Below are positions 19,130 through 22,729 of a stretch of DNA of 64,000 bases, in pieces. Below the pieces are notes generated by a model, which did not search any database, was not told the DNA's origin, and saw nothing but the letters and a program-made list of their open reading frames with translations. Source of the DNA: Halosolutus halophilus. GTDB lineage: Archaea > Halobacteriota > Halobacteria > Halobacteriales > Natrialbaceae. Within the stretch, counting starts at the first letter, position 1. Every line of letters starts with the position of its first letter. The DNA is taken from assembly GCF_022869805.1 (NCBI RefSeq), contig NZ_CP094974.1, forward strand, positions 3,534,001-3,598,000, written 5' to 3'. A program made the translations under genes and the position numbers.

Positions 19130-19750
19130 TTATTCTCTTCCCAGCGTGTGGAACTCGTCGTTCGGTCGCATGTCCGCGAACATCGCCAGCCGGTTGCTCA
19201 GGTTGTAGAAGGCCGTGACGGCCGCAACGTCCCAGATCGCCTCCTCGCTGAAGCCGGCGTCGCGCAGGGCCGCGAGATCGCTCTCCTCGACCTCCGTCGG
19301 CCGTTCTGTGAGTTTTACGGCGACGTCGAGCATCGTCCGGTGGGCGTCGTTGATATCCGCGGTCCGGTAGTTCGCCACGAGTTGATCGGCGAGTTGCGGG
19401 TCGTCCGCGTAGATCCGGACGAGTGCGCCGTGGGCGACGTTGCAGTAGTAACAGTGGTTGACGCCCGAAACTGCGACGACGATCATCTCGATCTCCTCGC
19501 GCTCCAGGGCGGTGTCCTCGACCAGCGCATCGTGGTACGCGAAGAACGCGCGGAAGTGCGACGGTTTGTACGCCATCGCCGAGAACACGTTCGGCGTAAA
19601 GCCCGCCCGATCGGTCTCGTCGGCGATGCGCTCCTGGAGATCGTCGGGGAGGTTCTCGAACTCGGGGACGGGGAATCGGTGCATGGCGTCGTCTGCGAGA
19701 TCGGGCTGGGATTCGAGACTGGCGTCGGGGTCTGATTCCGGTTCGGACAT
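19130..19750 (-). CDS. Peroxidase-related carboxymuconolactone decarboxylase-like protein (AhpD fold)
   Basis: A 206-residue all-helical protein of the CMD/AhpD superfamily, in the peroxidase-related alkylhydroperoxidase group. The redox CxxC is present in NHCYYCNVAHG near residue 105, with the downstream His that activates it. Members use the Cys pair for hydroperoxide reduction or thiol exchange. The first 25 residues are an acidic tail; I start at the ATG at 19750 since the frame upstream is basic and non-coding in style. Convergent with gltB, 15 bp away. Confidence 0.86.
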   Translation of the reverse strand: MSEPESDPDASLESQPDLADDAMHRFPVPEFENLPDDLQERIADETDRAGFTPNVFSAMAYKPSHFRAFFAYHDALVEDTALEREEIEMIVVAVSGVNHCYYCNVAHGALVRIYADDPQLADQLVANYRTADINDAHRTMLDVAVKLTERPTEVEESDLAALRDAGFSEEAIWDVAAVTAFYNLSNRLAMFADMRPNDEFHTLGRE

Positions 19751-19847
19751 AGCCCCCTCTTCACAGTCGATCGTGATAATTCGCGGTGTTCGGTCGCTGG
19801 ATCGCGACGCGATCGACTCCCGAACCGGACGGTGCCGATCGACGGCA

Positions 19848-20261
19848 TCACTCGTCTGCGGGCGTGCCGCCTTCGGCCGTCGCCGCCTCGCGGATCGCCT
19901 CGGCGTCGGGCGCGGCGAGCAGATGGGCCGCACAGGTGCAGTCCGAGGCCCCGAATCCGGCGACCCGATCGCCCGGCAGCCGATCCGCCAGTTCGCACTC
20001 CCGATCGGCGTCGGGGAACGTGATCGCGCTCTCGAGTCGCGTCTCGGACTGGCCGAGCAGGTAATCGACGTGCCAGTGGCGCACGTCGCGGCTGCCGCGG
20101 GCGAGTTCGCGGTGGCGGTCGACGCGGGCGAAGCCGCCGGGGCCGAACGCGGTGCCGACGTAGGCGTACGCGCCCGCAGGGAACTCGCGGGTCCCCAGCG
20201 CGCCGACGTCGAGTTCGATCGCCTCCGGAACGTCGATCACGAGCACGTACGTGCCGCCCAT
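19848..20261 (-). CDS. DUF123 (GIY-YIG-like) protein
   Basis: A 137-residue protein matching the DUF123 family, a divergent GIY-YIG nuclease-like fold that in some archaea is fused to endonuclease III. Recognisable parts are the N-terminal TYVLVIDV strand, the AGAYAYVGTAFGPGG motif near residue 30 (the GIY-YIG equivalent), RHWHVDYLL near 60 and the late DCTCAAHLL segment. It is probably a small DNA-related enzyme, but activity has not been proven for stand-alone members as far as I know. It may share a transcript with the gene to its left, about 100 bp away. Confidence 0.82.
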   Translation of the reverse strand: MGGTYVLVIDVPEAIELDVGALGTREFPAGAYAYVGTAFGPGGFARVDRHRELARGSRDVRHWHVDYLLGQSETRLESAITFPDADRECELADRLPGDRVAGFGASDCTCAAHLLAAPDAEAIREAATAEGGTPADE

Positions 20262-20342
20262 ACCGGGAGTGAGGGCGAGACGAACAAAAACTGGCGTGAT
20301 TTCTGGACGCGTTCGGGGCGCTGGATCGATCAGCGTGGCCCC

Positions 20343-21560
20343 TCACTCGGATTCGTACCGATCGCGTCGGCTCTCGTCAGTCGGATCCTGTTCGTGGACG
20401 TGCCGCCGATTGCGCTTGTCCTCGTCAGCTCGCGAGTCGTGTTCTCGTCGCTGATTCTGGTCACGATCGCCGCTCGATCGCTCCTCGGTCCAGCTTCCGG
20501 ATTCGTCGCGTGGCCGATCGGGGTCGTACTCGAGGCCGCCGCCGGTTCGGTCCTCCGCTCGGGGCTGGTCCCGCGACGTCTCGCCGGTCCCACGACGCGA
20601 TTCGTCCTGCCCGCGGTCTCCGCCTCGAGACTCGTGGCGACTCCCCTGCTCGGTCCGGCCCTGCTCTTGCTGCCCACGGGAGCCCTGGCTCCGCTGGTGC
20701 CGGCCTCCCGGGGGCTGGCCCGGTCGGTCCTGGTGGGTGTCGCGTTCCTCGTGCCAGCGCTCCTGGGGGCCCTGCTGTTCGCGATCGCGATGGTCCCGCT
20801 GGCCGCGCCGGCCCCCCTGTGGCTGGCCCTGCTGGTGCTGTTGCTGGCTGCCTTCGCGGCGCGCCTCCCCGCCGTACTGGGGGTTCGATTCCTGCATCGC
20901 GTCGGTGTGGAACCCTTCTCGCTCCCCGCCGCGTCTCTCCGCCTGCTGATCGCGGCGGCTACCTCGATCGCGGCCTCGCTGCTGTTCGTACTGCCCGCGT
21001 CGCTGTTGGCCCTCGCGATCGTACTGGCCACGGTCCTGCCGTCCCTGGGGCTGGTGGATCTCGCGATCGGGTTGGCTCGATTCGCGGCGTTCCTGGCGCC
21101 CGTGTTGCTGGTCGCCGCGATCCGTCCGCTGTCGGCCCTGTCGGCCGCGCTCGGCGACGCGTGGCGGTCCGCGCTGGTCGCGGGCGTCGGACCGGCCCTC
21201 CCGTCGCCAGCCGGTGTCCTGATTCTGGCGGCTCTGGTGACCCTCCTGGCGGCCCTGGCGGCTCTGGCGGTCCCCTCGTTTCCGGTCGCGTTCGCCCTGC
21301 ACGCCGGGGCTCTGACCCCAACCGGGTTCGCCGTAGGGTGTGTCCGTCCGTGTTCGGTCACCCGTCTCGTGCTGTCTGCCTCGATCGCCGCGACGACGCT
21401 CGCTGTCGCTCTCACCGCGGCTGAACAGCCCGTGGAGCCAGCCGCGATCGTCGCCGCCTCGATCCCGGCCGCCCTCGTCGCCGCGATACCGATCGCTCTC
21501 GCTCTGTCGGACGGTTCCTCGATCCCGCCGTCGCCGGTCGTCGTCGTATCGGTCGTTCAT
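20343..21560 (-). CDS. R/Q/G/E/D-rich intrinsically disordered protein
   Basis: A 405-residue polyampholyte made almost only of Arg, Asp, Glu, Gln, Gly, Ser and His, with many RGG, RGQ, DRG and RQ pairs and no globular domain beyond a short WLHGLFSR segment near residue 42. That it is real rests on composition: in a sampled 60-base stretch its codons show third-position GC around 90% and second-position GC around 55%, the haloarchaeal pattern, while the opposite-strand open frames have neither. A TATA-like element (CTTTTATT on the minus strand, near 21650) lies upstream. Such Arg/Gln-rich disorder is very rare in the acidic proteome of salt-in archaea. Function unknown; RNA binding or condensate formation is a hypothesis. 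Confidence 0.7.
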   Translation of the reverse strand: MNDRYDDDRRRRDRGTVRQSESDRYRGDEGGRDRGGDDRGWLHGLFSRGESDSERRRGDRGRQHETGDRTRTDTPYGEPGWGQSPGVQGERDRKRGDRQSRQGRQEGHQSRQNQDTGWRREGRSDARDQRGPPRVAERGRQGRQRTDRGDQQHGRQERRESSQPDREIHQPQGRQDRGQYDREGQQRRGQYEQQRGRDRGSRRDQQAERRGGEREGFHTDAMQESNPQYGGEARREGSQQQHQQGQPQGGRRGQRDHRDREQQGPQERWHEERDTHQDRPGQPPGGRHQRSQGSRGQQEQGRTEQGSRHESRGGDRGQDESRRGTGETSRDQPRAEDRTGGGLEYDPDRPRDESGSWTEERSSGDRDQNQRREHDSRADEDKRNRRHVHEQDPTDESRRDRYESE

Positions 21561-21727
21561 GATTGGAGTGAGGTGACGTCTCGCCCAGGTGAGGCGCTGA
21601 TGGCCGTCGCTACGTTCGTTCTCCGGGCGATGGTTCGCCGATCAGGTGAATAAAAGCACGGCGTGCGTTCGCTTGCAGCCGTTCGACGGGCGATCGGGTT
21701 CCGACGCGACGCGTTCGAGGCCCCGAC

Positions 21728-22729
21728 TCACCGGCGGTCGGAGACACGCGGTCCGTTCGCAAGATCGTATACCTCCCTCGCGTCAGTCGACGGGCCGAAC
21801 GCGAACAGGCCACGGGCCGGTTCGTACTCGTAGGTGATCCACTGTGGCAGGAACTGTGCCCCGATCAGTTTGCGCACCCCGAGTTGCTTGAGGCGGGTCT
21901 CGGGCGCGAGCTGGTCCGTCAGCCGCAGATCGACGATCCCGTCGAAGACGTACTCGTCCTCCGGATAGCTGTCGCTTCCGGCCGTTGTCGCCCCCGCAAC
22001 GATCGGCACGTACCGGGCCGTACAGACCGTCCCGCGAACCTCGGTGACGAAGTCGTGGACGCGTTCGCGCTGGAGCAGCCGTCCGAGTTCGTCAAGCGAG
22101 TCGATCGCCACCAGTCCCGTTTCGGTCATCTCGAGGGCGTCCAGCGCCTCGTGCAACGCTTCGGCCACCGCCGGCCCGTCGCTCGGCTCTTCGACGGCAA
22201 CGATCGAGTCCGCCGCCGCCTCGCCCACGAACGTCTGCCACTGGCTGCAGGTTTCGAGGAACTCCTCGCGGTCCGAGAGCCGGTGGGTGAAACAGTCGAC
22301 GATCCGCAGCCGATCGCTCTCGAGCGCCGGGAGGACGTTCCAGCCGTTCCCGAAGAACCGCTCGAGGGCCGCCGTCGGCGGGTTGGCGTAGGCGACGACG
22401 ATCGCGGGCTCGCCCCGTTCGATGGCGCGCCAGACGAGTTCGGTCAGGAGTTCGCTTCGGCGGGTGCCCTCGTCACCGGAGAGCAGCAGAAACGAGTCCG
22501 CCGGGATGCCGTTCGGTACGAGGGAGTCGAGCGGTTCGATCCCCGTCACGACGCGTTTGTAGGCGTCGGGATCGGGCATCGTCGACTCGTCGTCGGCGGC
22601 CTCGCGACAGCTCTCGGAGCAGTATTGCCCGTCCGTCCCCTCCTGCAGTTCGTCCGGGATCGGGTAGTGGCAGTGATCGCACCGGAGTGGATACTGGGGT
22701 GTCCGGTCCGTCGATCGGTGCTCACTCAT
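21728..22729 (-). CDS. Zinc-finger KaiC/RadA-like ATPase-fold protein
   Basis: A 333-residue protein. Residues 15-45 hold a zinc finger (RCDHCHYPIP then YCSESCREA), and the remainder is a RecA/KaiC-like fold with LVPNGIPADSFLLLSGDEGT near residue 70 in the P-loop position. The loop reads GDEGTRRS instead of GxxGxGKS, so the catalytic Lys is replaced by Arg, which predicts weak or no ATP hydrolysis. Walker B-like TGLVAIDSL is present near 200. The ATG at 22729 starts directly before the zinc finger. KaiC-like proteins of this group are widespread signalling or regulatory proteins in haloarchaea; the substrate is unknown. Confidence 0.78.
   Translation of the reverse strand: MSEHRSTDRTPQYPLRCDHCHYPIPDELQEGTDGQYCSESCREAADDESTMPDPDAYKRVVTGIEPLDSLVPNGIPADSFLLLSGDEGTRRSELLTELVWRAIERGEPAIVVAYANPPTAALERFFGNGWNVLPALESDRLRIVDCFTHRLSDREEFLETCSQWQTFVGEAAADSIVAVEEPSDGPAVAEALHEALDALEMTETGLVAIDSLDELGRLLQRERVHDFVTEVRGTVCTARYVPIVAGATTAGSDSYPEDEYVFDGIVDLRLTDQLAPETRLKQLGVRKLIGAQFLPQWITYEYEPARGLFAFGPSTDAREVYDLANGPRVSDRR

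What the first reader, a model, noticed from the sequence alone, without database searches (positions are those of the whole stretch)
20343..21560. Arg/Gln/Gly-rich disordered protein in a salt-in archaeon
A 405-residue protein composed of R, Q, G, D and E with RGG-like pairs is close in style to eukaryotic condensate proteins and very different from the acidic haloarchaeal norm. Codon-position composition supports the minus strand. In molar KCl, mixed-charge and Arg/Gln contacts could drive phase separation in ways acidic proteins cannot. A similar protein in archaea is not known to me.
Basis: partly seen in the sequence, partly recalled or inferred. Interest (0 to 1): 0.65.

Follow-up and report, generated by a model that had tools for sequence, protein, structure and literature searches.

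The report
Conserved arginine-rich disordered haloarchaeal protein
A salt-loving archaeon carries a real, evolutionarily conserved protein that is predicted not to fold, made almost entirely of arginine, glutamine, glycine and acidic residues with a few fixed short motifs; it belongs to an undescribed family found across several haloarchaeal families, and whether it forms droplets or shields other molecules is untested.

Summary
The minus-strand ORF 20343-21560 encodes 405 aa; R+Q+G+D+E make 72%, Lys 0.5%, Cys 0, hydrophobics under 5%. It is a real gene. Orthologues at the same locus in Natrialbaceae (52 of 125 genomes by profile; Natrinema, Halopiger, Natrialba) evolve with sense pN/pS 0.21-0.45, while the opposite strand in the same register gives 1.2-2.0. 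A TATA box lies at -95. The middle varies greatly in length, but composition, near-zero net charge and about eight short motifs are kept, above all FxTDAx5LEYGGEARHE (1-3 copies), RGWLHGLFSRG, SGGGLEY...W and NRRHVHE. The motif core L-x-Y/F-GG-E-A/S-R-H recurs in R/Q/G-rich ORFs of two other haloarchaeal families, at other loci. No Pfam, NCBIfam, PHROG, PDB or Rfam match; AlphaFold2 pLDDT 45. 'RGG-like' is only partly right: RG pairs are modestly enriched, but RGG triplets are at chance and no di-/tri-RGG exists. Condensation in molar KCl is physically plausible (published reentrant high-salt phase separation of Arg-rich proteins) but unproven. Even charge mixing and few aromatics leave a soluble 'shield' role almost as likely. 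The gene is dispensable: lost or broken in several species.

The parts
20343..21560 (-). CDS of the 405-aa R/Q/G/D/E-rich disordered protein (with stop codon)
   Evidence: purifying selection; AF2 mean pLDDT 44.9
21650..21655 (-). TATA box TTTTAT at -95 from the ATG; inferred own promoter
   Evidence: aligned and conserved in most orthologues, followed about 20 nt on by TAG(C/G) in most
21531..21560 (-). N-terminal motif MNDRYDDDRR
   Evidence: M1, D3, R9 invariant
21408..21449 (-). hydrophobic motif DRGWLHGLFSRGES
   Evidence: coordinates; absent in some lineages
21306..21341 (-). motif TPYGEPGWGQSP (weaker conservation)
   Evidence: coordinates
20853..20915 (-). repeat motif GFHTDAMQESNPQYGGEARRE (YGGEAR motif; 1 copy here, 2 FxTDA...YGGEAR copies in same-genus G002, up to 3 elsewhere)
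   Evidence: core also in other haloarchaeal families
20736..20765 (-). motif QERWHEERDT
   Evidence: coordinates
20682..20708 (-). motif GGRHQRSQG
   Evidence: coordinates
20484..20549 (-). motif RTGGGLEYDPDRPRDESGSWTE
   Evidence: highest AF2 confidence block (65)
20364..20426 (-). C-terminal motif DEDKRNRRHVHEQDPTDESRR (RRHVH in 23 of 23 diverse members aligned)
21728..22729 (-). upstream neighbour: KaiC-like ATPase with Cys-rich N-terminus; syntenic but not obligate
19848..20261 (-). downstream neighbour: DUF123 protein; syntenic but not obligate
19458..21653 (+). long hydrophobic antisense ORF (731 aa), judged spurious: the reverse complement of R/G/Q/D/E codons is automatically stop-poor and hydrophobic
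   Evidence: pN/pS above 1 in that register

Best explanation
A real protein-coding gene, probably with its own promoter, for a fully disordered polyampholyte, presumably cytosolic. Shown by computation: coding strand, orthology, conserved composition, conserved short motifs on freely varying R/Q/G spacers, no recognisable folded domain. Inferred: the motifs (F/L/Y in the YGGEAR repeat, W/L/F in RGWLHGLF, L/Y/W near the C-terminus, the RRHVH tail) are docking or sticker sites and the nearly Lys-free Arg/Gly/Gln chain is a weakly cohesive spacer, so the protein acts as a multivalent scaffold that self-associates and recruits partners in molar KCl through non-ionic Arg/Gly/Gln/Tyr contacts, probably as condensates or loose assemblies under some condition (the gene is dispensable).
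For: Sense pN/pS 0.21-0.45 in 9/9 pairs; orthologues in 52/125 family genomes in conserved synteny; conserved TATA box; spacers vary (full-length forms of about 325-760 aa) while R stays about 14-27%, K 0-0.6% and net charge mostly near 0; motifs invariant or nearly so with fixed internal spacing, YGGEAR repeated 1-3 times; the motif recurs in R/Q/G-rich ORFs of families f17 and f4, with about 3 reversed-pattern control hits against some 80 real hits; AF2 pLDDT 44.9; in a rough coarse-grained Monte Carlo the chain is near theta (nu about 0.47-0.55) and R-to-K makes it a swollen coil (nu 0.58), so Arg supplies the cohesion in that model. Published: Arg-rich but not Lys-rich peptides re-enter phase separation at high salt (PMC9705477); FUS and others do so by hydrophobic and non-ionic contacts (PMC7889641).
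Against: No binding, expression or droplet data. Charges more evenly mixed than shuffled in nearly all orthologues; aromatics only about 3.7% here; no RGG clusters. The simulation is near theta, not clearly collapsed, was noisy (replicates 0.47 and 0.54 at 4 M), and its parameters were recalled from memory and are not validated at 4 M.
Confidence: 0.4

Rival explanations
1. Hydrophilin-like molecular shield: a highly hydrated, non-aggregating filler that protects proteins, nucleic acids or membranes during desiccation, dilution or oxidative stress. It works by bulk composition, and the motifs are minor.
For: Gly 15% and mean hydrophilicity 2.5, above the hydrophilin thresholds as I recall them; very low hydrophobic content and no Cys; evenly mixed charges favour an expanded soluble chain; dispensable, lost or broken in some species.
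Against: Pure bulk function does not need invariant motifs with fixed spacing nor near-total exclusion of Lys in favour of Arg; Lys would hydrate at least as well and makes a more expanded chain in the simulation.
Confidence: 0.27
2. Nucleic-acid-binding protein (RNA chaperone or nucleoid/ribosome associated): the Arg/Gly-rich chain contacts RNA or DNA and the short motifs recruit a partner enzyme.
For: Arg 22%, RG pairs enriched (p 0.015); acidic haloarchaeal proteomes have few Arg-dense chains.
Against: Net charge about zero because D+E equal R; molar KCl screens phosphate contacts; no RGG clusters; no folded nucleic-acid-binding domain; neighbours are not RNA genes.
Confidence: 0.2
3. Adaptor or substrate for the neighbouring KaiC-like ATPase (one operon, one complex).
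For: KaiC-like gene directly upstream, same strand, in most orthologous loci.
Against: Natrialba loci keep the disordered protein without the ATPase or DUF123, G089 keeps both neighbours without it, and it has its own TATA box; the f17 relatives sit next to an NAD(P)H-hydrate epimerase/dehydratase gene instead.
Confidence: 0.06
4. Not a gene: antisense shadow of a hydrophobic plus-strand protein, or a low-complexity sequence artefact.
For: The plus strand is open across the whole region.
Against: Plus-strand register shows pN/pS above 1 and the minus frame 0.21-0.45 in all pairs; the motifs exist only in the minus frame.
Confidence: 0.02

Closest known systems
RGG/RG-box proteins (fibrillarin GAR domain, FUS, LAF-1, Ddx4 type)
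   Same: Disordered, Arg/Gly-rich, Lys-poor, RG pairs enriched
   Different: RGG triplets at chance, no di-/tri-RGG, few aromatics, acidic residues equal Arg so net charge about 0, no folded partner domain, conserved motifs of its own
Hydrophilins / LEA-like proteins
   Same: Gly above 6%, extreme hydrophilicity, disorder
   Different: Arg instead of Lys, fixed short motifs, no LEA repeat or Pfam match; stress induction unknown
Scaffold-type disordered proteins with short linear motifs (general class)
   Same: Variable spacers plus short conserved motifs, one of them repeated
   Different: Partner unknown; cytoplasm at molar KCl; no folded domain anywhere in the chain
Arg-rich reentrant condensates (protamine with hyaluronic acid, PR25 peptide)
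   Same: Arg-driven cohesion expected at high salt (PMC9705477, PMC7889641)
   Different: Those are strongly cationic; this chain is a neutral polyampholyte; no droplet data

Membership tests
RGG/RG-box proteins | Closely spaced RGG repeats (di-RGG or tri-RGG within 4 residues) | tested here: not met
   3 RGG, 0 di-RGG, 0 tri-RGG, 0 tri-RG
RGG/RG-box proteins | RG dipeptides above composition | tested here: met
   21 versus 13.7 in shuffles, p 0.015
RGG/RG-box proteins | RNA binding | not testable with these tools
   needs CLIP or in vitro binding in high salt
Hydrophilins (definition from my own knowledge) | Gly above 6% and mean hydrophilicity above 1 | tested here: met
   Gly 15.1%, mean hydropathy -2.51
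Hydrophilins (definition from my own knowledge) | Induction by water deficit | not testable with these tools
   no expression data
Any described protein family (Pfam, NCBIfam, PHROGs, PDB) | Profile or sequence match | tested here: not met
   (one of 17 members gave a weak collagen-repeat hit, E 0.006)
YGGEAR-motif disordered family (proposed here) | R/Q/G-rich, hydrophobic-poor chain with LxY/F-GG-E/D-A/S-R-H motif | tested here: met
   the window copy reads PQYGGEARRE, so two positions deviate from the core
Condensate scaffold | Forms droplets or foci | not testable with these tools
   only indirect: composition and rough simulation

The most novel reading that the evidence does not exclude
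A dedicated haloarchaeal condensate scaffold: a nearly Lys-free, charge-neutral Arg/Gln/Gly chain that phase separates in molar KCl by non-ionic Arg-based contacts and gathers partners through a repeated YGGEAR docking motif, giving salt-in archaea membraneless compartments that acidic proteins cannot build.
Probability: 0.22. Interest if true: 0.85.

Novelty: new variant of a known kind. Interest (0 to 1): 0.58.

Why it matters
Haloarchaeal proteins are expected to be acidic. A conserved family of neutral, Arg-rich, fully disordered proteins shows that selection there also keeps a different kind of chain. It offers a natural system for testing whether Arg-driven, non-ionic self-association works inside a cell at molar salt, and the conserved motifs give concrete baits for finding partners. 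The family has no model among the libraries searched, so it is likely to be annotated only as hypothetical.

Tried and rejected
Plus-strand ORF as the gene: rejected by pN/pS above 1 in that register. Obligate operon with the KaiC-like ATPase: rejected by synteny exceptions. RGG-box membership: rejected by RGG counts. Known RNA in the region: none. Plasmid or phage origin: no tblastn match in those collections (low-complexity filtering limits these). Searching outside Natrialbaceae with the C-terminal profile gave only weak, unconvincing hits; the repeat motif worked better. Literature: no paper found on a comparable haloarchaeal protein. Laying the whole genome for proteome-wide ranking was not available, so composition was ranked against window genes only. 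The salt dependence in the Monte Carlo was within noise.

Full report
Observation. The minus strand of 20343-21560 encodes exactly the 405-aa protein described. R, Q, G, D and E make up 72%. Compared with 44 other predicted genes of the window it is far outside the range for Arg, Gln and hydrophobic content, and about one and a half standard deviations above the mean in net charge, since the others average -0.106 per residue and this one is +0.012. Arg replaces Lys almost wholly (R/(R+K) 0.978, against 0.785 on average in the window).

It is a gene. Orthologues lie at the same locus in the two same-genus genomes, in Natrinema, Halopiger and Natrialba species, and in other genera of the same family (names; synteny). 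Profiles of the C-terminal part find it in 51-52 of 125 family genomes. In nine orthologue pairs, substitutions concentrate at third positions of the minus frame (pN/pS 0.21-0.45); in the in-register plus-strand frame, which is the long hydrophobic ORF, the ratio is 1.2-2.0. That plus-strand ORF is open only because the reverse complements of CGN, GGN, CAG, GAC and GAG codons are stop-free and hydrophobic. A haloarchaeal-type TATA box (TTTTAT, window 21650-21655) is conserved upstream, usually followed about 20 nt later by TAG(C/G), consistent with its own promoter. This is inferred, not measured.

Anatomy. Full-length forms run from about 325 to 760 aa, so the spacers change freely, yet Arg (about 14-27%), Lys (0-0.6%) and near-zero net charge are kept. 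Short motifs stay fixed: MNDRYDxDRR; DRGWLHGLFSRGES; FxTDAx5LEYGGEARHE, present 1-3 times with constant internal spacing; RHQRSxG; SGGGLEY...W; and NRRHVHE, where RRHVH is invariant in 23 diverse members. Not every member has every motif. AlphaFold2 gives mean pLDDT 44.9, highest over GGGLEYDPDR (65). There is no match in Pfam, NCBIfam, PHROGs or PDB sequences; across 17 members only one gave a weak collagen-repeat hit.

Wider family. The repeat-motif profile gave weak hits in two other haloarchaeal families, f17 and f4, and the ORFs there proved to be R/Q/G-rich and hydrophobic-poor, with the core L-x-Y/F-GG-E/D-A/S-R-H. A degenerate DNA pattern for this core hit 60 of 392 order genomes; the reversed-pattern control hit about three. 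Outside the home family the pattern also falls in unrelated ordinary ORFs, but 12 genomes show it in R/Q/G-rich, hydrophobic-poor ORFs of 359-581 codons, stop to stop. The f17 members lie next to an NAD(P)H-hydrate epimerase/dehydratase gene in all eight loci examined, a different place from the Natrialbaceae locus. Common descent is likely but rests on a short motif plus composition.

Dispensability and neighbours. G089 has the KaiC-like ATPase and DUF123 genes with no such gene between them; Natrialba chahannaoensis keeps only a 155-aa internal deletion form; in G083 the motifs fall in two different frames. Natrialba keeps the gene without the two neighbours. So the neighbours are not obligate partners and the gene is conditionally useful.

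Mechanism. Invariant motifs on variable spacers are the usual signature of a scaffold-type disordered protein. Near-complete use of Arg over Lys fits cohesion by Arg, which published work shows persists at high salt where Lys fails (PMC9705477), as do non-ionic contacts of FUS-type proteins (PMC7889641). A rough one-bead-per-residue Monte Carlo put the chain near theta conditions and an R-to-K version in a swollen state; removing aromatics and Leu changed little and the salt effect was within noise (parameters from memory, not validated at 4 M). Against condensation: charges are mixed more evenly than in shuffled sequences in nearly all orthologues, aromatics are few, and RGG clusters are absent. 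I give scaffold or condensate 0.4, hydrophilin-like shield 0.27, nucleic-acid binding 0.2.

Verdict. The sequence observation is right and stronger than claimed, because a conserved family stands behind it. The condensate reading is plausible but unproven, and the RGG comparison holds only for RG pairs.

Noticed in passing
21728-22729 (-): KaiC-like ATPase with a Cys-rich (zinc-finger-like) N-terminus; orthologues at 55-87% identity in most syntenic loci of the home family, and homologues at about 40% in other haloarchaeal families.
   Followed up: partly
L169, L171, L172, L174, L181-L183, L185: In family f17 the R/Q/G-rich motif protein is always next to an NAD(P)H-hydrate epimerase/dehydratase gene; in L171, L172 and L174 it is also next to an amphi-Trp/HVO_2922 family gene.
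   Followed up: partly
L136 (G089), L085/L100, L145: Natural loss, internal deletion and frame-broken copies of the gene in otherwise intact loci.
   Followed up: partly
L005 1501-2679: Halopiger orthologue carries a perfect tandem repeat of a 9-residue unit (GQRHQQGQQ), suggesting spacers grow by repeat expansion.
   Followed up: no
window 21561-21640 and A7: The 5' leader between the inferred start site and the ATG (about 70-95 nt) has a partly conserved stretch (GCCATCAGCG-like); could be a regulatory element.
   Followed up: no
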